This document shows, in pieces, positions 13,355 to 60,400 of a stretch of DNA of 64,000 nt. A program made the position numbers and the translations under genes. The notes below the pieces were generated by a model, which saw only the letters and a list, made by a program, of their open reading frames with translations, was not told the DNA's origin and did not search any database. Source of the DNA: Cystobasidium ongulense (Eukaryota > Basidiomycota > Cystobasidiomycetes > Cystobasidiales > Cystobasidiaceae); the NCBI GenBank assembly GCA_022835595.1, contig BQUP01000003.1, positions 1,474,975 to 1,538,974 of the forward strand. The letters run 5' to 3'. Every line of letters begins with the position of its first letter. The stretch's first letter is position 1.

Positions 13355-13902
13355 TTATAAGACAACAATGGTCGATGGCGTGTACTTCTTGGTGTTGTAG
13401 ACAGACTTGCCGACCTGTTCATCACACACTTTGCAATCAGCCAATGCCGCATGCGGGCAAAGCATCGACAGAGCATGCCCGTCCAGCTTGCAAGCGACGG
13501 AAGCCAGCTCACCTCCCAGCCGTCGACATCCTTCATGATCTCCTGCTCCCTCGCTAATGCTGCTTGCGAGCGTCTGTACACATCGCGGTCGCCTTCTGCC
13601 ATGATGAGCGGGACGAGGTGGATTCTCGACCACGCCTTTTCGCGTTGGAGTTCTCTGTAGACGTTCCATGCATCAGCGACTGGCTAATACATGGATAAGT
13701 GATTGTGCATGGCCCACCTTCGCTCTAGATTACCCAGACCCAGCCTCCAGAAGCCAAAAGCGCAAATGGTAAAGATGCCTCCAAAGACGACGGCTCCTCC
13801 AGGCCCTCGGACAGGCAGGTTGCGCCTGTAGCGGACATGCTCGAAGCCTCCTGGCGGCGGAAGGTCCTGGCCGTACGGCGGCGTGCTCTGTGCCTTTGAC
13901 AT
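13355..13902 (-). CDS. NDUFA13: NADH dehydrogenase (complex I) subunit GRIM-19/NDUFA13
   Basis: Accessory subunit of mitochondrial complex I in the inner membrane. Exons on the minus strand: 13718-13902, 13513-13654, 13355-13414. They sum to 387 nt (128 aa), which closes. Residues 10-30 hold Q-D-L-P-P-P-G-G-F and R-Y-R-R-N-L-P, followed by one membrane helix (V-F-G-G-I-F-T-I-C-A-F-G-F-W). The R-E-L-Q-R-E-K-A-W-S-R-I and A-E-x-D-R-D-x-Y-R-R segments are family signatures, and A-L-A-R-E-Q-E-I-M-K-D-V leads into the C-terminal Y-N-T-K-K-Y-T-P. An in-frame Met upstream (13968) would add 22 residues unlike the family, so the start at 13902 is preferred. Length is normal for fungi. Confidence 0.95.
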
Positions 13903-14320
13903 GGCTGCGTCGTGTCCTGTTGCTGGTTGGCGTGCTGTCAAGCTGGTTGGTCGAATCCAGGATGGCAAGGACGTCTAGCGAGGTGTGAGTAGAGTCGAGA
14001 AAGTCATGTCATTCATTAAAGCAAAGCAAGTCCCTTCCCTGTCCAAATTATCTGTATTACTGTCGTTGTCTGAAGGTACTGCATATGAGAATGTGCTATC
14101 GTACACCGGGTCACAAAGTCCATGTAGTAAGTAATTAAGTAGCTAGGGTACAATAGATTGCCATTTATACAGGATGCTTGCTTGTATGTGTCGTAGGCAT
14201 AGGTACTTGCAGTCAACATATCTGATACTAATCAGTGGGTCTCGTGTATTCGTTTCCGTATCTAGTCTTTCAATGTTTCATTCTTTATTCTCGATTGTTT
14301 CCATCTCTTAAAGTGGTAGA
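13903..14320. other. intergenic region between two minus-strand genes
   Basis: AT-richer 418-base stretch that contains the GRIM-19 promoter and the 3' end of the fusion gene. An AATAAA-type signal in minus orientation lies at 14284-14289, about 30 nt beyond the stop at 14321, and could direct polyadenylation. Nothing else identified. Confidence 0.55.
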
Positions 14321-17300
14321 CTATGAAGCATCGCCATTCACCAGCTTCTCTTGGTCGAGAAGCATAATAACAGCCTGCTCGCTAGGACCTTGGAATGCAT
14401 TCGGTCCATCTTCAAACTTGTACACCCGCTTGACTACAGGTTTGAGCTGCCCTGATTCTGCAATCTCTCGTAAGCGGATGAGCGCTGCACGAGCATCGGC
14501 GTCCACGCTTGGGAACCAATACATTATATTTTTCTGCAGAGATTGGAATTGTCAGATGTGTTGCTGTGGCTAGCAAGAATTGGCGAGCTCACCCTATCTC
14601 TGTTTTTAAAGAGCGCTTTCAACGACTTCCGCCAGTTGGCTTTGGCAGTTGGCATGGACAAGGCATCTCCCACGGTCGTGACTAGCACAGAGAAAAACAA
14701 TGTCAGCCTTGATCGAGCTACAGTAGGGTACCAAACCATCCTTACCAAAGTACCCATCATCATGGAGTATACGCTTTGAAGCATCATACAGTTTCCTTCC
14801 TCCAATCGTATCCAATACAGCGTCATATGTCGATTCTCTCAAGCTTTGTAAAGCAGCGACCGGATCGCCGCATAACGTTTCCGACGCTCCAAGCTGTCTC
14901 AATATCGAATCTCCATCCGAAAAATCTGCAGGGTAATGACCTATCATCCAGAGATCACCTCCAGGACGTAAGCTATGGCCTAATTGAAGTGCCAATGCCC
15001 CGACACCTTCATGTGCGTTCAAGATGATAAGCTTGGAGCCTCGTTGAAGCGTCGAGCAGAGCTCATCCATCGCTTGGAAGGCTGAAATGCCAGATAACGC
15101 GACGGCTGCTATTTGTTCCAAGCTAAGAACGCCATTGGGCGCTTGCGATAGCATGCCTCGCTGTACTGTAACGTACTCAGCGAGTGCTCCGGACTGAAGT
15201 GAGGAGAAGCAGGAACGATTCAGCCACCAACAGAGGACCAATCGAGCTAGAGACTAACGTACCTTTCGCAAGTCCGCTAGACCATAAACAAAATCTCCTT
15301 TCTTGACCTTACTAGCATCAACAGCATCGCCACACTCTAGCACTCTACCAACGAAAGCTCTTCCAGGAACAAAACCATACCCTTGTCCTCTAGTATGTAA
15401 GATTTCCACTTTAGCTCTATCCCAAAAATCAAGAGCACAAGCGAAAACTTGTACTAGACATTCATCTCCTCTAACTTTATGTGGTACTGGTGTAAGATTT
15501 GAATATGTAACAGTAGCTTTAGAATCAATACTACCGTTCAAATGGTCAGGTAATTTCGGATTTTGTCGAAGTGTCTTCTGTGTATTGTTACGCCAGAAAG
15601 AACGTCCCAAAGTTTGAGTAGCGTTTGAAGTGAGAGTTATAGCTCGCATAGTTGAGTTTGATGTCGGTAAGGTAATCTTGCCGGAACTGAAATTCCCCAC
15701 TGAGAATGGTTTCACGCCCGTCTTTGCATTTAGCCGTTGTGTAGAAGGTACCGTCATGACAGACATGATACCTTGAGAGCGAGCTCCAACAGACCCTGCA
15801 TCAGAAGTGGGTGCCATCGGGTGAGCATTACCATTCGGGATCGAAGTGTTGCTAACGTTCGGTCCTTGCGAAACATATATCCCCGATAAATCATCCGTCC
15901 CGTTAGGCATGCGCTGACTATCGTCAAATGCAGTCATGATATTGGGCATATCAGGAGAGGCCTGCATATCTCTTGACTGTCGACGACGTAAACTATTTTG
16001 CTGCTGCATCGCAGACGCTTGATATGCGCCAGCACGGGAAGGATAGTGGAAAGGAGCGTTCGCACTATCTCCGCTTGCTCTGCTCGAAGTACTCTGCGCT
16101 CTCGAAGGAGGTAAGCTCGTATTAAGAGCCGACCTGTCGACAGCGACCATTTGTACTTCAGCTGTCGATTTCGGCATTCCATTGTGCATAATTGGCTGTT
16201 GTGTGGATGTGACTCCGTCTTTCATTGATGCGGTAGGGGTGGGCACTGAGTATGAAGATCCAGTAGAAGCAGTTTCGACGCTAATTTGACGTGCAGGTGT
16301 TTGCCCATTATATAGTTGTTGTTGCTGCTGTTGGTGTTGACCCTGGTGTCCGCCAGTGGGGAATGGGATCCCAGATTGGTGCATTTCGGTCCCCTGAACA
16401 ATGTTCATTACATGCCCATCAATAATGACCGATCTACGATTCGGGTCATAAAGAACATTTGAATCTTTAGAATTATCCGATTCTGTTCTAACAAGGTATA
16501 CCTTCGGGGGTCCAATTGTCAGATTCTCCTGATTAGCGGGAGTTGCACGACCGCTACCGGTGGGTGTCGGAGAGAGGCTAGAAGTCGGAGGTGAGGGCGT
16601 ATGTTTTTGAATAGGTGATAGCATAGCAAAGTAATTTTTACCATCGTTATTATCCCAATGAGCTTGATTTGTACTTCCATTCTCCAATCTCAAAGCAAGC
16701 TGTACATCAGCTCCATTCGTACCGGGTGGGAGGAGCCAAGTGAATTGATATCGTTTCATTTCCTCAGGTGCGACGCCAAATGAAGCGTGTATAGGAGTAG
16801 CTACTACTTCTTCGTAATTTGCCCAATTGTTCCATGTTAAACGGGCGAAGATCATAGCTAAATCGTGTACTGCAAGAACGAGCACCGTGCCTTGCAGAGA
16901 GCGAGAGACCAGATGCGGGTCAAAGGTAGACAGTGCTGAGAGTGATTCTAGTCTTATTGGTGGACCAATATTGAATATTGGCACAGGCACGATACCCGCG
17001 GCGATAATAACGTCTGTCTGCTTGAGTGGCCCTTCTAGCACTGACTGCGTTTGGGCCTCATAAGGCTTCGTAGCTGGAGGAGCCGTATCCGCCTCTGACA
17101 TGCCTTGTTTCAGTGTTTCAGTGCCGGGTGGGGTGGAGGACCAAGGAGCTCCAGGTGGTGCTTCTTCCGCGATTGACGTATCAGGTGGAGTACTAGGAGG
17201 AGTAGCGAATTCCGAAGCTGGAGTTTGGACTAGTTCTTCTCGAGTAGGTTCACCTTCTTCAGCTTCAGACCTGGAAATCTGGGAAGAGTTTTGAGCGACG

Positions 17301-18851
17301 GCTTGTGACGTAAGAGGCATGATAGTCTGCTGCTGTGGTGGATGTGAATTGAAATACATCGTAGGACCTCTTGACGAGGATTGCGTAGGACCTGACGCAG
17401 ATGAAACCTGTTTGGGCGTGTTGGTAGCTTGGAAAGTTTCGTCTGCCCCAGAGAGACCTGATTCTTCTTCGTCCGCTTCTTGAACGACCTCCATGACCCG
17501 CTCAAGTAAGCCTGCTTTTGCCAATGCTTCGACGACTTGCTCGGGCGTACGCTGCGTAATAAATGATCGGTAAGCACAAGAAGAGGAATTACAGGTTTCA
17601 TCAGCACCAGATCAGACTTACCTTCTTCTTTGACGGAGAAGCAGGTGGTGTAGGCATATTCATCAGATTATTCTTCAACGTGTTGGAATGCAGATCCAGG
17701 GGTTTTCCAGAGGACCCCCTAGCAGACGTTGAAGCCGTGGATCTCGTGCTTTTCTTGCTTCCCGTGGAAGAGACAGAAGTAGATCTCTGTCTTTCTGCAT
17801 GTCTAGTTGCTCCGTTCGGAGGCCCTCCGGCAGATGAGTCCGATGCGACTGGATCCAGACCGGACTTGTGTCGTTGTTTCTGAGTTTGGCGAGAGGCCAC
17901 TTTGGTGCGTAAGGCGTATGAAGCTTCTGAGCCCGCGTGCGAGGAGCCGTCTTGGGATGAGGTTGGGCTTGCTCTTCCATCTCTTGGTATGTCAAGATGG
18001 TTTGGAGTATTTGCAGCAACTTGTGCATTTGTCTTAGAACCGGTAGCCGTGTCAGGCTGCATGCTATAGCGTCTCGAAGGCTGTGGATCCCTATCCATGA
18101 GCTTCTTCGTGCTGCTGAGCGTACTCTTGCGCTGTACTATGGCATTCGCAGGATTGCTGGTAGATATGACAGTTCCGGATGCTTCTGATCGTCGGACTAG
18201 GCCTGGTCCTCCAAGCGAGTTATGCCATAGCCCCATTGAATTAGCTTGCTGAGCTGTCTGAGTGACCTTTTCAGACTTGCTTCCTCTTCTAACGGACAAT
18301 CTCCTGCTTTGAGAGAGAGTACTTCCAGCATCTGAACCACCACCATCGATTGATGAAGCTGTTGAAAAGGTACGATTGCGCTTTGAGCGTCCGTATCCTC
18401 CTATATCAGACATGATTTCCAGATTGTCTCGCTCGTTGAAGAGTGCAGGATTGAGATCTCCAAAAGTGACACTCCTTCGCTTGTCTCCTGCGGGAGAGTA
18501 TCTGTCTGAACTCTGGATGGCGGCGGAGTTGGATGCTCTTAACCTGGAAGTGGATGAAGGGTCATAGGACATGCCTACATCCGACGCAGCGTATGATCTT
18601 CTGGACGGTTTGAGAGCAGACAAGCTCGAGTATCTCTTCCTGCTGCTGTCTCCATTGATGGATCCGCCATAGTTGCCTGTGTCATCAGCGTCAAGCCTGC
18701 CACCTGGACGGTTCGAGGTCCCGCTTTCGCCAGAGCGGAACGACAGGAGCGAAGCATTGTCTGCGACACTTCCACCTGCATCGCTGAGGCCACTGAGGTA
18801 GCTTCTGGACGGTCTCTTGCCTAGCTTTTGCGTGAGGGATGGTTTGGGCAT
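14321..18851 (-). CDS. fusion protein: RVxF-like motif, CBM21-like domain, MDR quinone reductase-like domain
   Basis: Five exons (minus): 17622-18851, 15263-17551, 14746-15193, 14593-14717, 14321-14533. They sum to 4,305 nt (1,434 aa), which closes. Residues 1-600 are Ser-rich and mostly disordered. R-R-S-V-T-F-G-D (residues 125-132, DNA about 18456-18479) fits the RVxF docking motif for protein phosphatase 1. Residues about 614-719 (16625-16942) resemble a CBM21 glycogen-binding module: G-T-V-L-V, W-N-N-W-A-N-Y and the terminal W-D-N-N-D-G-K-N-Y. This pair is the layout of glycogen-targeting PP1 subunits (Gac1/PPP1R3). After about 350 Ser/Gln-rich residues comes a medium-chain dehydrogenase/quinone-reductase fold (about 1085-1434) with V-P-G-R-A-F-V-G-R-V and a nucleotide loop H-E-G-V-G-A-L-A-L. 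Exon 2 is one uninterrupted frame running from the CBM21 region into the MDR domain, so the fusion is not made by splicing. Confidence 0.85.
16625..16942 (-). other. CBM21-like carbohydrate-binding domain (within the fusion gene)
   Basis: Domain-level annotation. The pattern G-T-V, then A-R-L-T-W-N-N-W, F-T-W-L-L-P-P, V-Q-L-A-L-R-L and A-H-W-D-N-N-D-G-K-N-Y follows the CBM21 order of beta-strands and the conserved Trp/Asn glycogen-contact motif. Assignment is by eye. Confidence 0.7.
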
Positions 18852-35345: not shown

Positions 35346-36467
35346 TCATGCTTCATTGAGGTGGTGACCATGTGTATTATTATAGAATAATGTATTCATC
35401 TTTGATTTGTAGAAGTAATAGAATTGACCATATGTGGCGATGATTCTCTTGCACTCGGATGCATCTCCTCGCCAAAACCATGCTCTCGATCTAATCGCGT
35501 ATGCACGCAAACAATTAGCGTGAAACCTCTTCAGGCGGAGGTCTGAAACGGTAGCAGTCTCCGTGTCGTAGCGAAAGTCGGTATTTCCAATTGAACGAAA
35601 GCGCACGAGTGTAGTGAGACGAGGACACCAGCTTGGGTCTGTGGCTAGAAGTTCAAAGATCCGTTCGACCACTTCGAACTCTGTGACATCAATGACTAAG
35701 TGCTGGAGGAGTGGAGGAAAGGGAATGTCTTCAATTCGGTGATCTACAACTGCTATAAGGCGTAGAGAGATTAAATGAGGTACGTGACAGAACAAGTCGG
35801 CATATATTGTGTTGCTTATAAAGCTTCCCAACCCAGACAGTCTTAAGCTCGTTAATTGCCTACCGCAGCTTGCTAAAATAGTCTGAGCCGTTTCGACGGT
35901 CGTGTCGAGTGATAAAGCCCGCAGCGATGTTGCGTTGGAAAAGGACATGACGAAAACTTCCATTGTCAGTTCTATCTGATTGTTGCAGATTACCTCTAAG
36001 CGCTTGACTGTTCTTGGAATGACCGGAAATGGTGGATGTGCGAGCTCTCTGGTGTTTTGAAACGAGATTGTAATGTCGACCTCTAAACGTAGGGTGATCA
36101 CACCGGGGCAAGCCGCCAGTATACGGCTCATGTCTTCCAAGTGGGCAGCGCGGATATGGAGTCGCAACACAGCCTTACTGAGGTGCGGATTGTGTTTGAA
36201 TGTCTTGAGGAGAGCGACTTCACGACGATTATGTGCACAATTACGAGCATTAAGGAGACCAACATGAGGAAATGCCCGTGATCCTTGGGTGGTAGAATCA
36301 ATATAGATTTGTCTGTAAAGTGCTTTTGTCACTGGGCCGTACGTGCCTCTACAGACTCGCGCGAAAGAGCTGCGGTCTCGAATATCTTCGATGAGTTCTG
36401 CCACACGGCGGATGACTTGAGCTGCGGAGAAGAGTTCATGCTGCGATGAAGAAGCGGGTGGAACCAT
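35346..36467 (-). CDS. F-box-like/LRR protein, tandem copy 1
   Basis: Intronless open frame of 373 residues. Residues 15-55 (V-I-R-R-V-A-E-L-I-E-D, then F-A-R-V-C-R-G-T-Y, then L-Y-R-Q-I-Y-I) fit the second half of an F-box-like domain that would bind Skp1 in an SCF ubiquitin ligase. The rest is a series of irregular leucine-rich repeats (C-P-G-V-I-T-L-R-L, then A-T-S-L-R-A-L-S-L, then V-P-H-L-I-S-L-R-L) that could select substrates. It shares many blocks with the next gene: R-I-L-A-A-C-P, T-T-V-E-T-A-Q, F-P-P-L-L-Q, W-C-P-R-L-T and R-F-R-S-I. The F-box assignment is an inference from the pattern. Confidence 0.75.
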   Translation of the reverse strand: MVPPASSSQHELFSAAQVIRRVAELIEDIRDRSSFARVCRGTYGPVTKALYRQIYIDSTTQGSRAFPHVGLLNARNCAHNRREVALLKTFKHNPHLSKAVLRLHIRAAHLEDMSRILAACPGVITLRLEVDITISFQNTRELAHPPFPVIPRTVKRLEVICNNQIELTMEVFVMSFSNATSLRALSLDTTVETAQTILASCGRQLTSLRLSGLGSFISNTIYADLFCHVPHLISLRLIAVVDHRIEDIPFPPLLQHLVIDVTEFEVVERIFELLATDPSWCPRLTTLVRFRSIGNTDFRYDTETATVSDLRLKRFHANCLRAYAIRSRAWFWRGDASECKRIIATYGQFYYFYKSKMNTLFYNNTHGHHLNEA

Positions 36468-36931
36468 GGCGATTTCTGTATCGTAAGAGAACAGACCGAT
36501 GATTCAAGCAATGTCGTTTGTCAAAAGGTTGCGTCTTGCACGTATGTCTGGTAGGTTGCGACCGTTGAAGCGATGAAGTATTCGAGAAAAGGCAGTATTA
36601 CCTTCCCCTAGCAGCCTGCCAGTCATATTTCACAGTGGCAGCTAGTAATTGAAGTGAGCAGATTCAGCCGTTACCACTGGAGAGAAGCTTACGATTTCGG
36701 CCAAGCTTGTCAAGGTTTGTTCTGGATTTCTCTTGAGGGGTGCGGTCTTTTTTTGAGTTACGTTTCTGCGGGATTGAATAAAGAACAATATCTTGTAATT
36801 ATATCATTATATGAGTGTGATCACGCTTGAACCCCATTAACATCAATTATATCAAGCTAACAATACATTTCTAGCATCTGCAGAGGTCGCTGTCTCTTGA
36901 CAGCTCACCTCATAAGGAGTAGGTCAGGTCA
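36468..36931. other. intergenic region between the two F-box-like genes
   Basis: 464 AT-rich bases (notably around 36775-36870) without any recognisable feature. It holds the promoter of copy 1 and the 3' end of copy 2. Confidence 0.5.
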
Positions 36932-38020
36932 CTACACCACTTCAAAATCGAAAGATCTCGGCCTTTTTGCCAATGTCTCGAACTCAGATGCACCCCCTTG
37001 CCAGAATTCTCCTTCTACTCTGGCTGCGTAAGCGTGTCCACAGTTCTCTCGAAATCGCTGCATGCGGAGCCTAATTTCATCCCACGTAACACCCAGAAGG
37101 TCGGTATATCGAATCGATCGAAAGCGTGCAAGTCTGGTCAAACGAGGACACCAAGTTGGCCCGCTAGCCAGTAACTCGACAATTCGTTCTATCGTCTTGA
37201 AATCAATCGTATAAAAATCAAGGCATTGTAAAAGAGGAGGGAATGAAATGTTTTCGACTTGCTGGTCCGTGATTTCGTATAGTCGCAGAGAGGTCAAATG
37301 TGGTACGCAAGCGAACATGTTGTTATAATCTGTGTCGAGTATATTGCCCACGTCTCTTCCCAGCTTGCACAAGTTCAGCCTCGTAATCCGACTCGTATCG
37401 AGATTTTCTAGGATTATCTGAGCCGTCTCCACGGTCGTGCAGAGTGATATAGCCTGCAATGATGTAGCATTCAAGAAGGCTTGAACTATAGCTTCTGTTG
37501 TTGGTTGAGTCAAACCGTCGTGAATAATGTAGAGCCGCTTTACCGTTGACGGAATAGTCGGGATGGCTGGGCGCTCCAGTCGCCGTATTCTTACCATGCG
37601 TATGTCATCGGGATTGAAGTACGGGAACTGCAATTGGAGAGACGTCAAGCTAGGGCAGGCAGCTAGGATACGATTTATCTCCTCCTCCGGCATTGTGACG
37701 GTATAAAGCGCCGAGACAGCTGCTCCAAGCTGTGGATTGCATTCCAGAGTTTTGAGCAGAGCCAGTCGCCGCTTCACTGCAGTGAGGGGGTTTTCGGGAT
37801 CTACAAAGTTGGGGATCCTATCATGACAGTTGAATACACGCTTGACAGGCGGAATCCCAATGTGTCTGTACCGTAATTGTATCACAGAGGCATATACGCC
37901 TTTGCTGACTCGCGCGAATGCAATGAATCTACGGGCAGAGCTTAGCAATTCTGCTATACGACAAGTTATTGATCTTGTCGATAGGAGCGGATGATTTCTT
38001 GCAGGACTCGTGGATGACAT
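36932..38020 (-). CDS. F-box-like/LRR protein, tandem copy 2
   Basis: Intronless open frame of 362 residues, same orientation and same architecture as the gene at 35346-36467. The F-box-like start (I-T-C-R-I-A-E-L-L, then F-A-R-V-S-K-G-V-Y) is followed by leucine-rich repeats. Shared blocks in the same order show the two are paralogues: R-I-L-A-A-C-P, I-P-S-T-V-K-R-L, N-A-T-S-L-Q-A-I-S-L-C-T-T-V-E-T-A-Q-I-I, F-P-P-L-L-Q-C-L and W-C-P-R-L-T-R-L-A-R-F-R-S-I. They have diverged over most of their length, so the duplication is not recent. Being intronless in such an intron-rich region is notable. Confidence 0.75.
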   Translation of the reverse strand: MSSTSPARNHPLLSTRSITCRIAELLSSARRFIAFARVSKGVYASVIQLRYRHIGIPPVKRVFNCHDRIPNFVDPENPLTAVKRRLALLKTLECNPQLGAAVSALYTVTMPEEEINRILAACPSLTSLQLQFPYFNPDDIRMVRIRRLERPAIPTIPSTVKRLYIIHDGLTQPTTEAIVQAFLNATSLQAISLCTTVETAQIILENLDTSRITRLNLCKLGRDVGNILDTDYNNMFACVPHLTSLRLYEITDQQVENISFPPLLQCLDFYTIDFKTIERIVELLASGPTWCPRLTRLARFRSIRYTDLLGVTWDEIRLRMQRFRENCGHAYAARVEGEFWQGGASEFETLAKRPRSFDFEVV

Positions 38021-38295
38021 CAGGAATGCAGCGTGATGGGAGAAAAACCAGCAATCTAGTTCGGTGGTTTGTCATCTACTGCGTTGTTTGAATCGTCGAG
38101 CACGCACGCCCGTCATGTCACGTGTGTACGTTGTGTCCGGGAGATCCGTGAAAGGGTGCCGTCCTGCTCGTCAGACAACTTCGTTGCGTTGCCCCATGGC
38201 TTGCGGGGGAAGTCAAACGAGTGGAGTCCAAGTTTGCGAGGAACGCGTAGCAATGATCGTTCCAGTGAGCAGCTTCATGTGCGATGATGAGCCGG

Positions 38296-54403: not shown

Positions 54404-57400
54404 TTACCGTGTAAGGTATGATCTCGACGGTTGTTGCTGTCTCACGGGTGTCATGCCCGATCCGAGAGCTTTGAACGCTCTCAATCGAGCACTGAGACTA
54501 TTCTTGCGCTTCATAAGCGAACCTGTGCGAATTGGACCCGGGGCGTCTAGTGTGACTGCAGCAGCGGTGACAGGATTTATTGGAGAAGAGAGTATCGCAG
54601 AACTCGAAGAAGTGCTTTCGGCAGGAGATACCATAGCATGCGAGGTGGGTGTGGGCGTGGGGCCACCTAAAGGATTGATGCGAGTGACAGGAATGACGCA
54701 GACAGCAGTAAGTGCTTCCATGTCTTCCTCTTCTCCGTCGCCTCCCGCCTGCGCTTGTGGTTCTTCCGACACTGCTCTGCCGCTCGTCTCTGCAATGTCA
54801 GGCAGTGGCGTATACTGACCAGCGGGCGACGGATAAGCGGAAGATTCTTCGCTCTCTTGGGCTTCTTCGTATACCGAAGGAGCAGGGGACGAAGAGGCTC
54901 TTGAAGCAGAGTGGAAATCTCCATTCCTTTCGAAAACACTCCATAATGAACCTGAGCTTGCTTGACGTTTATCAGCCATTGAGCTGAGATTAGGCGCCGA
55001 GCGGCCACCGAAAATATTCGGTTGGGAACCCGCACCTCCAACCATGCTAGGTGGAGCGCTGACTCCGCTTGTGCTTCTTTGGTGTCCTGCCAGGCTATTC
55101 CTCTGCGTTTGCCCAGGAGCGGTGAGGGTATTCCAGCCAACTCTATCCCAACTATATCTTCTCTCGTATGAATGCGAGGAAGTAGCAGCGGACCGGCTAC
55201 CACTACCATGCGAGCAATTACTACCACATGCGTTCCGTCCAGTGTAGATAAACTCGGCAGCATTCTGAGCCTGCTCGAGCTGAGCACCTTCAAGCAATGC
55301 CTCTGGTGGAATAGAGAGGATGGGCCGCTGGGAGGCGAACGATCTTTTCCGCATGAGAGTATGTGATAGCGCATCACCGATCTTGGTCCATCTGCTGTGA
55401 GTTTCCAAATCCACTGGCGTGAGGAGCGGACTTGCAGGAAGTGAAGATTGCGGTGTTTCGAGAGAAGTGCCAAGTGAAGGATCGGTAGACGTTGAAGCGT
55501 ACGAGGAAGAGGAAGAAGTCGAAGAGTTGCGAGCTACTGAAGCCTGAACGCTTGCATCAAGTATAGCTTGCTCTGGAACAATCGCAATAGCGATTGGACC
55601 TGTCTGAGTGCTGACTGTAATAATAGCAGCCTTAGGTACAGAATATTGCTCCGCTTGCTGTTCTTGAATTTGTATCTCTTCAAGCGCTTTCATAGCTCCA
55701 GCATCCGAGACAAGCGAGGTAGCACGCCGTCTGATCTTCCCCAAAGTCGAGTTACTGCGCTGCGGTCTGGTTGTAGTATCTGTAGCCTCTTGATCGGACA
55801 CTTGTGCACTGGTTCTACTACGGCGCAGTTTTGTAGGTTTGCGTCGTAGATTATCAGGGCCATCCGTTTGAGACAGACTGGAAAGGTTGGCACTACTAGC
55901 GGAAGCATTAAAGAGTTGCTTCATCCCAGTGGATGATCTAGGACCATCAGACTCAGCGAGGCTCGTGCGCCGAGAAGACAATGTTGAATCGATGATGTTC
56001 CTGTAGCTGAAGGACCCAGGATGGAACGAGTGAGGTCGTTTATTGTGACTTTGTGGAATACCATGTGGTGCAGTCAACGAGCGGGGTGGTGGCCCATGGA
56101 GAGGCATAGCATGAGATCGCTTGCTTTGTGCTCGAGCAGACAGGATGCTATCAGAAAGCAAATCCGCAAGTCTCAGATCTACCCCAACTCTTTGCGCAGG
56201 TGGCTTGAGAGATAGGCGAGATCGGAAACCTGGATTGCCCGCCGACATCGCTTCGTCGCGAAGCGACAAGAATGATGCCGCTCTCGAAGTTGAAGGCCTC
56301 GGTGGTTCGGGTGAGGTAGGAAAGACTCCAAACTCCGAGCTTGGCATAATCGGCGAAACACCTTCGTACATAGCAGCATTCGAATCCAGTGGAAGACTGC
56401 AAACCGGACTCTCGTCAAATGCTATGGTATTATTGGCTACGTCCTCGAGCCATTTTGTTCGGCAAGCTGAAGTAGCTTGGTCGATAGCTGGACGGTCGAG
56501 CACAAGATTAGCAACATCCCTCTTGCGCGAAACAAAAAGGGAATTTCTTACCTTCAACCCAGATGTCCTGCTCAGAATGACAGAGAGAGCCAACTTCGAA
56601 AGTATGATCTCCACAGTTCATGCGGAAAGCGTATGGAAGTGTGCCTGTTCAACGCGATGCTGGTCAGACTCCGCAGCCTTTGTGCATGGGTAGCTCTAGT
56701 CAGAAACTCACCTTCTCCATCTACAACCTTGACCAGATCAAATAACCTCAAGGGGAGCCAATGGCGGGGTTCGTAAACATTTGTCTTTTTGACTTTGAAG
56801 AAGACAAGGTGACTGTTGTAGAGAACCAGACCATAGAAGCCAGCTTTGACAACCGAAGGCAAGCCTTGTAATGCGACTGTCGGTGCGTGCGCGTAGATGA
56901 CGTGTGCCGAGCCAATGAGTAACACTTGCTCGAGTCGGTTGAGCAAGCTAACATGATCCTGCTGCATGGTTCAAAGACATTGTCAGCACAGTGTCCTCAT
57001 GTGCCATATAGCGAATCAGTTACTCACACTTTGTACCTCTATCCTTCTGGCCAGTTTTACAGTTGCAACCTCCAAGGACCGCAGCTTCTGGGCGTGATCG
57101 ACTCCACTAGCTACGACTTTAGCAGTGTGCAATGCTTCCCTGATTCTGTCGATGCTCTTGTCAACGTCCGGAGAGGTACCTCGCAACGAAATGGAAGTGA
57201 TCGTAATCTGCGGGTCATCCACTCTAAGATCTTGCTGAGCTAAACTGGTCTTTTGGACATTTTTGAGTAGACTTCCGAACAAGAGTGGATATCGACATAT
57301 CCTTTGTACTGGTTTGATGAGAAAGTCTGCAAAGTGTAATCTCGAGGAAGAGGAAGAAAAGGATGACGATGTCTTCGTTCTCCTTGAAGCTAAATGAGCA

Positions 57401-60400
57401 GTGCATTGTGCTTCAAAAGCATCCCATTCCGTTTTTGTTCCCATCGCAGATAGCGTTTTCACAACTTCCATAGCTTCAGAATGACCAGAGCAGAATGGCT
57501 GATATGCTTCTGAGAGATTTTTAGCTTCATTGATGAAGATCGAACTGATCCGTCTAGCGGCATCGAGTACCGTAGCGTCAGAGCTCTTGAAACGTCGCGT
57601 TGGAACTGTGGTTCGTCTTGAGGGCGAACGAGCTGTAGAACTGGCAGAGTAGTAAGACTGCTGGCGAGATGGAGTCGATGGAGTATAAGTAGATGGCGTA
57701 GAGTGTTCATCTGTTGAAACGGAACTTGCATCGTCCCAATCTTGCGGTGACGCCGCCCCGCTCTCGTCTGTGTATTGATCTGAATCATCCTCTCTGATCC
57801 AGCCGAGGTCCTCGTCAACCCGCTTTAGCTTCTCCTGTAGGCGGCGATGCAGATCAACGAGATGAGTGGCATCACGAACGATAATAGCCCGCTGTTCTTC
57901 GGTAACGAAGCGTGCGATCGAGAGAAGGGAGAAATGAACCTGTGCGTAAAAGGAGAGGGAAGCGTGTAAAGTGTATTTAGTCAGTCCCCATTCGGATACA
58001 AAGGGAAATATCTAGCCTCGAGAGCGGAAAACAGATCAAAGCTACTCACCTCCACAAGATCTGTTAAATCAGCAGTGTACCCACTTTCCGAGTTTACTAG
58101 CTCCAGGAGGGTATGGTAGAATGTTTCGTCTGCATCATTCGCTTGTTCGACTTTCTGCTCGTCGGTCAGGCCATCGTGGAGCGAGCTCCCAGCTTTAGAG
58201 AGCTGTTCAGCAAAGGCAATGGCATCAAAGGGATTGGTGGGCTCTGCCAAATCAGCAGGAGAATCGATACGCATATCTGGCGTATTCGTTTCTTCTAATG
58301 GAGTGAGAGGCAGCCTTGAGGACGAGAATAGGTCCAATCCAGCTCGCAAAGTAGGAATGCGAGCTGATGTCGATGGGTGAGAGGCTACCAGAGCCTCTGA
58401 GAGAGCAGCGTGTGTTGCTTTGGTGGGTGAAGCAGGCAGAGAGCTCGATAGACGGTGACGACTGGCGTGCCCGTGCCGAAGGTGGCTGCGGGAATTTGAA
58501 AGTGTGGCAATACTTTCAGAGGACGCGATGTCTTCGGGCAATGCAGAGTCAAGGCCCTCTACAATGTCTGCGGGTGATGCGAGTACTGTCTGTTGACGAT
58601 CTTCGTGTGGTTGCGGCTGTCCAGTCTGTCGTGTAAGGGTAGCAATGAGCGCTGGAGGCGAGTCGAGAATGACCAGCTTGGCGAGAGACTCTGGGAGTGC
58701 AGCTCTCAAAGATTCCGAAGGATTGAACGAGGGTATGCGATAGAGCAAGTCGGGTCGTCCACCATTTAACGAAGGTGATGATGATGATGAGGACGAAGGA
58801 CAGGAAGGATCAGTCAGGGACGCTTGCTCGGTCGCTGCTGCTGTCCAAGAGCTCTTCCTTTGAGGCAGAGCGTGGAGATCCTCCGGCTCAGATGTTTGGT
58901 GGGGGGATGTGTTTGAGTTTGATAGGGGTGCAATTCTCCCTATATCGTTGTTGGTGGTGATGATGGGGATGTCAGCTGTCGCCGGCTCTGCTTCTTGCTC
59001 AGCTGATGGCTGTGAGGATCTCTCTGACTGAAAAGGCTGCAAGTGGTGGTGGCGTCCCGGGCGTGTCTCTGCCTCTGCGGCATGGGCTGGACGGAGAGGG
59101 TCGCTTGAAGTGAGCGATACGAACGAGTATGTGAATGGCTTGCGGGCAGCAGTCGAGGATGCTAGCAAGCATGAAGCTCCTCCGGTCTCAAGGTCGCGCT
59201 GATCGTGGCTGAGTCCAAGAGTGTTGACTGCCTCCAAGCTGGGGGGCGAGCAGGAAGACAAGGACAGCGAGCGAGAGCGTGCTGGTTGAGCAAGATCAAG
59301 AGTGTGCGGGTCTTGTTCAAGTCCTGGAGGAAGCGCAGTCCGCCGCGAGTGGGCTTGCGTTGTTGTGTGCGACGCACGCCCTGTAGAATTGACAAGCAAC
59401 AACGACGACGGAGAGAGAGAGGTCAGCAACCAAAAAGTGGATGGCGTGAGAAGCTATGTTATCAACCCACCTCCAGTCACGCCGCCGTGCAAGAGTGCAG
59501 ACGAGCTCGAGTTGCTCCGCCGTCGGCGTTGTTCAAGGTGCAGGTTGGCTGCTGCTGCTATCGGGCGCTGATGGTGGTGGTGGTGGTAGTGGCGGCGGGG
59601 TCGTTGGACGTCGCATACGCCCGGCGCACTCGTTGGACGGGAGGTGGATGGATCTGCAGATGTAGGATAAGGTGCCGCTACTGCTGACGCTACCATCCCA
59701 TCCTGCGAGTATGCTGGCTGCTGCTGGCCGTGAGCTGACGGAGAAGCCAGCGGGGTGAGGGAATTGACCGACGATGCAGACGAGGTCGTTGAAATCGAGT
59801 TGCTGGAGCTGGAGCTGACGAGCAGGCCACCACTTGCGCCATGCCTGCTACTGCTGCTCTTCAGTGCTCGCTGAGTCTTGTCTGACGATATGCTGCTCGA
59901 GCGCGGGCGTGTCGATGTCGATGTCGATGGTGTTGATGCTGCTGCTGCTGCCGTCGACAATGGCAGTGCTGCTGATAAAGTCGAGCTCGACAAGACCGGG
60001 CTGCTGTGCGAGGTGGCAGACGGGAACAGCATACCACTGCCCTCGCCATGCCCCAGCACGCCGCCAGCAGTCATCATTGCTGCCTCTCCTCCTGCTCCTC
60101 CTGCTCCTGCACGTGAACGACCACCAGCCTGGCCATCGATAGTGTCGATGTCGATAATAATCCTGCCGTCGTTGGGGACGATGATGAGATCCGCTCCACC
60201 TGTAAACGGCAATGGAGGGAGTCTGTATGGACTGTCTTCTCTTCTTCGGGCGGCGTCGTGCTTCTCGTCCTCCCGCTCGAGCTCTCTCATCCACGTCGCT
60301 TCTTCCTGCTCTCTGCCCGTCGCTAGCTTCGAGTGGCCTGATGATATCCCGCAGGACCTCGACGACTTTCTAGGAAAGCAACACAGCAACGACTGCTTTT

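What the first reader, a model, noticed from the sequence alone, without database searches (positions are those of the whole stretch)
14321..18851. One gene joins a PP1-docking-like motif, a CBM21-like domain and an MDR oxidoreductase
Seen: R-R-S-V-T-F-G-D at residues 125-132, a W-D-N-N-D-G-K-N-Y block closing a CBM21-like segment at about 614-719, and a full-length MDR (quinone reductase/alcohol dehydrogenase) domain at the C-terminus. The CBM21 region and the MDR start lie in one uninterrupted exon. Known: glycogen-targeting subunits of protein phosphatase 1 (Gac1, PPP1R3) pair an RVxF motif with CBM21. Inference: a glycogen-bound PP1 regulator carrying its own NAD(P)-binding domain, which could couple redox state to glycogen control. 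I know of no described protein with this layout, but could not search.
Basis: partly seen in the sequence, partly recalled or inferred. Interest (0 to 1): 0.72.

Follow-up and report, generated by a model that had tools for sequence, protein, structure and literature searches.

The report
Glycogen-regulator-like domain fused to oxidoreductase domain
A fungal gene really does join a domain related to glycogen-regulating phosphatase subunits with an oxidoreductase-type domain, but the parts that would grip glycogen and the redox cofactor look altered, so it is more likely a repurposed scaffold than a plain glycogen regulator.

Summary
The layout is real. Window 18851..14321 (minus strand) reads as five exons and 1,422 aa (reader: 1,434). 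Pfam finds CBM21 (aa 625-717) and the MDR domains ADH_N and ADH_zinc_N_2 (aa 1106-1400), all above cut-off. The 324-codon linker is open and reads as coding, so one gene is likelier than two. The CBM21 is nearest to PP1 glycogen-targeting (PPP1R3) subunits. The proposed function is weaker. All six residues that bind glucan at PTG's primary site (site II) are changed, while 6 of 7 site-I residues and the WDNND docking motif are kept; the genome's other CBM21 protein keeps site II 5 of 6. The MDR glycine motif has Glu where seven comparators have Gly or Ser. The PP1-like RRSVTF lies 501 residues before the CBM21 (about 84-134 in three canonical proteins) and is only modestly above chance. My reading: a divergent Gac1/PTG-type protein, docking proteins rather than holding glycogen, fused to a possibly non-catalytic RTN4IP1/PIG3-like MDR domain. 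No fungal collection was searchable and folding was switched off, so spread and fold are open.

The parts
14321..18851 (-). Whole gene: exons 18851-17622, 17551-15263, 15193-14746, 14681-14593, 14533-14321; 1,422 aa
   Evidence: Splice sites and frame worked out; all four introns GT..AG, 59-70 nt, each with a CTNAY branch-like site
17622..18851 (-). Exon 1, aa 1-410, Ser/Arg-rich, no Pfam family at E<=1
   Evidence: 0 families; codon score best in frame in 12 of 12 overlapping windows
18456..18479 (-). RRSVTFGD, aa 125-132, RVxF-like possible PP1-docking motif
15263..17551 (-). Exon 2, aa 411-1173, holds CBM21, linker and first part of the MDR
16631..16909 (-). CBM21 domain, aa 625-717
   Evidence: PF03370: (own-genome search, C3:1491605-1491883); nearest solved structures PPP1R3C/3A/3B
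16856..16873 (-). Degenerated glucan site II loop, aa 637-642 (PTG N177, F180, E181, K182 replaced by A637, D640, L641, A642)
   Evidence: Alignment; site residues named in PMC9582199 section 6
16643..16657 (-). WDNND substrate-docking motif, aa 709-713, intact
   Evidence: function of the motif in PPP1R3D, PMC4482762 passages
15650..16621 (-). Linker aa 721-1044, open and coding-like
   Evidence: No stop in 324 codons; 0 of 5000 shuffles open; in-frame codon score best in each window lying in it
15647..15649 (-). Met1045 (MRAITL...), the most obvious candidate for an internal MDR start
   Evidence: Context TCAAACTCAACTATGCGA
14390..15466 (-). MDR domain, aa 1106-1400 over exons 2-5 (genomic span includes introns 2-4)
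   Evidence: ADH_N, ADH_zinc_N_2; RTN4IP1, quinone oxidoreductases, VAT-1
14999..15019 (-). Dinucleotide-binding motif NAHEGVG, aa 1232-1238, with Glu1235

Best explanation
One gene encodes a divergent relative of the PP1 glycogen-targeting subunits (Gac1/PPP1R3) fused to a C-terminal MDR domain of the RTN4IP1/PIG3 quinone-oxidoreductase type. Shown by sequence: a single long frame, the two domain families, loss of the main glucan-site residues, retention of the WDNND/site-I face, and a changed glycine motif. Inferred: the protein is an intracellular scaffold whose CBM21 docks protein partners (glycogen synthase or phosphorylase, or other clients) through the WDNND face rather than holding glycogen through site II. 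If RRSVTF is a working RVxF motif it brings PP1 to those clients on a long tether that looks disordered. The MDR domain supplies an interaction or dimerisation surface, with at most altered NAD(P)H binding.
For: One gene: the 324-codon linker has no stop (0 of 5000 letter shuffles open), and the in-frame codon score is the best of six frames in 23 of 24 overlapping windows of exon 2, 12 of 12 of exon 1, 3 of 3 of exon 3 and 1 of 1 of exon 5; exon 4 was not scored. CBM21 of PPP1R3 type: 4 of 4 PDB matches at E<=0.1 are PPP1R3C (two), 3A and 3B; the paralogue gives the same four first, then Rhizopus glucoamylase. Site II: 0 of 6 PTG residues kept in the window protein, 5 of 6 in the paralogue with the sixth Tyr to Trp. 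Site I: 6 of 7 kept, against 4 of 7 in the paralogue; WDNND 5 of 5, against 3 of 5 in the paralogue. WDNND binds PP1 substrates in PPP1R3D (PMC4482762, passages). Glu1235 stands where the five PDB chains shown have Gly or Ser (two of the five look like the same quinone oxidoreductase) and two other MDR loci of the genome have Ser and Gly.
Against: A residue count is not a binding test: the CBM21 of a Magnaporthe hybrid peroxidase also showed no match to the known aromatic binding residues in an incomplete model (PMC5571214, passages), yet what appears to be the same protein bound soluble starch (PMC7463560, passages). Site I could still bind glucan. The RVxF motif may be chance, in which case there is no PP1 link. 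A Glu in the glycine loop need not abolish cofactor binding. The codon score is a weak instrument: it dips to 0.08 in the window over the CBM21 start and again at aa 1011-1070, right at the possible internal start, and it also favours the gene's frame (0.05) in the untranslated-looking stretch upstream of the ATG. No relative was found to show that any of these features is conserved.
Confidence: 0.42

Rival explanations
1. One reading: a glycogen-bound PP1 regulatory subunit with a working NAD(P)H-binding domain that couples redox state to glycogen control.
For: PPP1R3-type CBM21, consensus-fitting RRSVTF with a phosphorylatable Thr at the x position (GM and GL carry a regulated Ser there: PMC9582199 passages), MDR domain; PP1-family phosphatase N-terminal domains, glycogenin-like, phosphorylase, Alpha-amylase_C (taken as branching enzyme) and debranching-type genes are in the genome.
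Against: Site II lost, 0 of 6. N and K of GVNK are both Ala, and C. albicans strains with alanine at either position failed to accumulate glycogen (PMC11520303, passages). Glycine motif changed. Motif-to-domain spacing 501 residues. The genome has another, more canonical Gac1-like protein. No glycogen synthase was found in the assembly, though this may be a gap.
Confidence: 0.17
2. A fungal MDR enzyme with a long disordered N-terminal region that happens to contain a CBM21 used to sit on an alpha-glucan or glycoprotein; no PP1 involved (like the CBM21-peroxidase fusions).
For: RRSVTF is only modestly above chance, and RVxF-like strings occur in 4 of 12 other long ORFs of the window in loose form and 1 of 12 in strict form. 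CBM21-oxidoreductase fusions exist: hybrid B heme peroxidases (PMC5571214, PMC7463560, passages).
Against: The CBM21 is nearer to PP1 subunits than to the solved glucoamylase domain, though its matches are weak enough that a weaker amylase match could be missed; site II lost; glycine motif altered.
Confidence: 0.26
3. Two genes: a CBM21 protein upstream and a separate MDR gene starting at Met1045 (MRAITL), read by chance through one open frame.
For: Met1045 stands where I recall stand-alone MDR proteins starting (M-K/R-A-I/V), with A at -3. The in-frame codon score dips to 0.08 in the window aa 1011-1070.
Against: A 972-nt stretch open in the same frame (0 of 5000 shuffles open), with the in-frame codon score positive and best of six frames throughout it, the dip included. 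Two genes would also need an undetected exit of the first one out of the frame.
Confidence: 0.1

Closest known systems
PP1 glycogen-targeting subunits PPP1R3A/B/C (GM, GL, PTG) and fungal Gac1
   Same: CBM21 of the same type; WDNND docking motif; an RVxF-like motif N-terminal to it; G and V of GVNK
   Different: Glucan site II residues absent; RVxF-like motif 501 residues away instead of 84 (PTG, from PMC9582199 numbering), 88 (paralogue) or about 134 (C. albicans C1_01140C, from PMC11520303 numbering); 1,422 aa with an MDR domain added
RTN4IP1, PIG3/TP53I3 quinone oxidoreductase and VAT-1 (MDR superfamily)
   Same: ADH_N plus ADH_zinc_N_2; best PDB match RTN4IP1 2vn8, E=2.4e-12
   Different: Fused to a CBM21 protein; Glu in the glycine motif; far below the PIG3 family cut-off (48.1 versus 296.8 bits)
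Fungal hybrid B heme peroxidases with CBM21 (MoHyBPOX1)
   Same: A CBM21 fused to an oxidoreductase in a fungus, with poorly conserved binding residues
   Different: Peroxidase, not MDR; CBM21 C-terminal, not upstream of the enzyme domain; placed by its authors at plant cell-wall sugars

Membership tests
PP1 glycogen-targeting subunit (Gac1/PPP1R3) | CBM21 domain | tested here: met
   PF03370 E=5.2e-11 over cut-off; 4 of 4 PDB matches at E<=0.1 are PPP1R3
PP1 glycogen-targeting subunit (Gac1/PPP1R3) | RVxF PP1-docking motif at the N-terminal side, near the CBM21 | tested here: inconclusive
   RRSVTF fits the consensus; strict-form chance 0.0485 (full) or 0.0065 (exon 1), loose-form 0.5055 or 0.0605; spacing 501 residues, unlike the three canonical members measured
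PP1 glycogen-targeting subunit (Gac1/PPP1R3) | Glycogen-binding site II / GVNK residues | tested here: not met
   0 of 6 site-II residues, 2 of 4 GVNK residues; the paralogue keeps 5 of 6 and 3 of 4
PP1 glycogen-targeting subunit (Gac1/PPP1R3) | WDNND-type substrate-docking motif | tested here: met
   aa 709-713, 5 of 5 residues as in PTG
PP1 glycogen-targeting subunit (Gac1/PPP1R3) | Binds PP1 and promotes glycogen synthesis | not testable with these tools
   Needs binding and deletion experiments
MDR superfamily (quinone oxidoreductase branch) | ADH_N plus zinc-binding-dehydrogenase (Rossmann) domains | tested here: met
   ADH_N 8e-06 and ADH_zinc_N_2 1.6e-14 over cut-offs
MDR superfamily (quinone oxidoreductase branch) | Glycine-rich NAD(P)-binding motif | tested here: inconclusive
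   NAHEGVG: GVG kept, but Glu1235 where the five PDB chains shown and two own-genome MDR loci have Gly or Ser
MDR superfamily (quinone oxidoreductase branch) | NADPH-dependent reductase activity | not testable with these tools
   Needs enzyme assay

The most novel reading that the evidence does not exclude
A new class of PP1 regulatory subunit in which the glycogen-targeting CBM21 has been turned from a glucan grip into a protein-docking module, and an MDR domain has been added as a sensor or scaffold, so that PP1 acts on glycogen enzymes or other clients away from the glycogen particle in response to NAD(P)H or a small molecule.
Probability: 0.2. Interest if true: 0.72.

Novelty: new variant of a known kind. 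Interest (0 to 1): 0.42.

Why it matters
Glycogen-targeting subunits are thought to work by holding PP1 on glycogen. A relative that kept the substrate-docking face but lost the main glucan site, and carries an oxidoreductase-type domain, would separate the two jobs in nature and offer a direct test of whether metabolic state can gate PP1 through a fused sensor. It would also explain why a genome with an apparently canonical Gac1-like protein keeps a second CBM21 gene.

Tried and rejected
Recent duplicate of the Gac1-like gene: rejected, the two proteins align only over 96 columns of CBM21 at 27% identity. Chance open frame between domains: rejected. Recent capture of another MDR gene of this genome: no other own-genome match to the MDR protein at E<=0.01 (all four matches are its own exons, and only the best candidates are scored), although other MDR genes exist (11 matches, of which one, C3:1489364-1489864, is this gene). 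SILK and MyPhoNE PP1 motifs: no MyPhoNE; the one SILR lies inside the MDR domain (aa 1269) and was discounted. Survey across organisms: scans of viral contigs and genome contigs with exon 2 found no relative (409 and 586 pattern matches, none confirmed), as expected for viral and prokaryotic collections; no fungal collection was available, so nothing is claimed about spread. Literature: the rows listed (20 of 25 papers; 20 of 51; 1 of 1; 20 of 27; 15 of 200; 10 of 12; 10 of 51; 8 of 378; 10 of 77) show no CBM21-MDR protein in titles or abstract starts; the unlisted papers were not seen. I read passages of PMC11546739, PMC11520303, PMC5571214, PMC9582199 (plus its section 6), PMC4482762, PMC7463560 and PMC6506691 only. 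PMC7314958, which holds the words CBM21 and quinone oxidoreductase, and PMC4102429 on fungal domain architectures were seen only in listings. PMC11546739 reports one CBM21 protein (1,007 aa) among 11 CBM proteins of Ustilago crameri, so a second one may be absent or missed there. Glycine motifs in other own-genome MDR loci: one scan stopped on a file error (end), two were too narrow and found only one locus; the broader one, run over L008-L018 and the stretches L027 and L028, found the motif in L008, in L012 (seen again in L028) and in this gene (L010); introns and partial loci hide the rest, so the own-genome comparison rests on two loci.
Full report
What is there. On the minus strand of the window, 18851 down to 14321, the sequence reads as five exons (18851-17622, 17551-15263, 15193-14746, 14681-14593, 14533-14321) and 1,422 residues. 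All four introns are 59-70 nt, begin with GT and end with AG, and each holds a CTNAY branch-like site. The window lies in a 19.77-Mb genome of 19 contigs; I take it to be a fungus, probably a basidiomycete, from the gene content and intron style, but no call names it.

Domains. On the full protein Pfam gives CBM_21 at aa 625-717 (E=5.2e-11), ADH_N at 1106-1192 (E=4.5e-05, 24.1 bits against a cut-off of 23.5) and ADH_zinc_N_2 at 1275-1400 (E=1.2e-13), each above its cut-off; ADH_zinc_N is below its cut-off. Exon 1 matches no family at E<=1. Among solved structures the CBM21 matches only PP1 glycogen-targeting subunits: PPP1R3C (two constructs), 3A and 3B (4 of 4 at E<=0.1, best 3e-06). The MDR part matches RTN4IP1 best (2vn8, 2.4e-12), then quinone oxidoreductases and VAT-1 (12 matches at E<=0.01).

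One gene or two. Between CBM21 and the MDR lie 324 codons without a stop; none of 5000 letter shuffles of that stretch stays open (mean 14.9 stops). A codon-usage score trained on ten other long ORFs of the window (not confirmed genes) is best in the gene's own frame in 23 of 24 overlapping windows of exon 2, 12 of 12 of exon 1, 3 of 3 of exon 3 and 1 of 1 of exon 5; exon 4 was not scored. The single exception is the last window of exon 2. Two presumed non-coding stretches score below zero in all six frames. Against over-reading it: the score falls to 0.08 in the windows aa 591-650 and 1011-1070, the latter over the possible internal start, and the 201-nt open stretch just upstream of the ATG also scores best in the gene's frame (0.05). 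Met1045 would be a natural start for a lone MDR protein, so transcripts remain the final test.

The PP1-like motif. RRSVTF fits the RVxF consensus. In shuffles of the whole protein a strict form appears in 4.85% and a loose form in 50.6%; in shuffles of exon 1 alone 0.65% and 6.05%. Among 12 other long ORFs of the window, 4 carry a loose form and 1 a strict form. The motif was also picked after the fact. Its distance (F130) to the CBM21 glycine (G631) is 501 residues, against 84 in PTG (RVVF 84-87 and G171, from PMC9582199 numbering), about 134 in C. albicans C1_01140C (VHF132, G266; PMC11520303 passages) and 88 in this genome's other CBM21 protein. The x position is Thr129; in GM and GL the x residue is a Ser whose phosphorylation releases PP1 (PMC9582199 passages), so a kinase switch is conceivable.

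The glucan sites. PTG binds beta-cyclodextrin at site II through N177, F180, E181, K182, Y203 and D214, and at site I through R187, W193, Y196, C235, W246, N248 and N253; [quoted passage not shown] In the window protein site II reads A, D, L, A, P, K (0 of 6) and site I reads R, W, Y, R, W, N, N (6 of 7). The stretch G631-W653 that holds four of the six site-II residues aligns without gaps; the D214 equivalent lies beside a two-residue insertion and is less sure. Of the GVNK signature, G and V stay, N and K are both Ala; C. albicans strains with alanine at each of the four positions failed to accumulate glycogen (PMC11520303 passages). WDNND, which binds PP1 substrates in PPP1R3D (PMC4482762 passages), is kept 5 of 5. 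The paralogue at C2:1290783-1291097 (1,517 aa as I read it from one frame, KAVHF at 745) keeps site II 5 of 6 with Tyr to Trp at the sixth, GVNK as GLNK, site I 4 of 7 and WDNND 3 of 5. So this genome has a canonical-looking Gac1-like protein and, in the window, a second CBM21 protein of another kind, with the opposite pattern of kept residues; the two share only the CBM21 (27% over 96 columns). Caution: a Magnaporthe CBM21 for which no aromatic binding residue could be matched in an incomplete model belongs to what appears to be the same protein that bound starch.

The MDR domain. Its dinucleotide motif reads NAHEGVG (aa 1232-1238). In the five PDB alignments printed (two of them apparently the same quinone oxidoreductase) and in the two other MDR loci of the genome that showed the motif the residue at that place is Gly or Ser; here it is Glu1235. 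This suggests altered or weak cofactor binding; it does not prove it. No closely similar MDR gene was found elsewhere in the genome.

Setting. The gene upstream, divergently placed, is an alpha/beta hydrolase; the gene downstream on the same strand is a GRIM-19 subunit. PP1-family phosphatase N-terminal domains (3 matches; the family model does not tell PP1 from PP1-like enzymes), a glycogenin-like gene, phosphorylase, a single Alpha-amylase_C locus taken as branching enzyme and a debranching-type GDE_C gene are present. Glycogen synthase was not found by Pfam PF05693, by a recalled Gsy2 fragment (whose answer warns that an empty result without a known positive shows nothing) or by one recalled DNA pattern. 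The PF05693 search rang in 2 of 14 control genomes, but the assembly may simply have a gap.

Verdict. The architecture is real and I found no description of it in the searches listed in Tried and rejected, but I could not search any fungal sequence collection. The likeliest function is a repurposed, non-glucan-gripping scaffold of PPP1R3 descent with an MDR domain of uncertain enzyme competence; the link to PP1 is possible but unproven.

Noticed in passing
Own genome G000 (19 contigs): No glycogen synthase found by PF05693, a Gsy2 fragment or a DNA pattern, although phosphorylase, a branching-enzyme-type domain, debranching-type, glycogenin-like and Gac1-like genes are present; an assembly gap is likely but not shown.
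   Followed up: partly
L001/L003 (G000:C2:1290783-1291097): A canonical-looking Gac1-like protein (1,517 aa as read from one frame) with KAVHF 88 residues before the CBM21 glycine and an almost intact glucan site II.
   Followed up: yes
window 13684-13974: GRIM-19 (complex I subunit) gene directly downstream on the same strand.
   Followed up: no
window 35346-36503 and 36932-38071: Two neighbouring ORFs with similar-looking translations (about 380 aa each), likely a tandem duplicate; the first has no Pfam family at E<=0.001, the second was not scanned.
   Followed up: no
window 57016-59453: RhoGEF domain in 57016-58011, with an adjoining long ORF just upstream on the same strand that may belong to the same gene.
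   Followed up: no
L012/L014 (G000:C2:2205378-2207634): Two zinc-dehydrogenase-type matches about 2 kb apart on the same strand, a likely tandem pair.
   Followed up: no
L024 (G000:C3:1644718-1645128): Glycogenin-like protein with a long Ser-rich C-terminal tail.
   Followed up: partly
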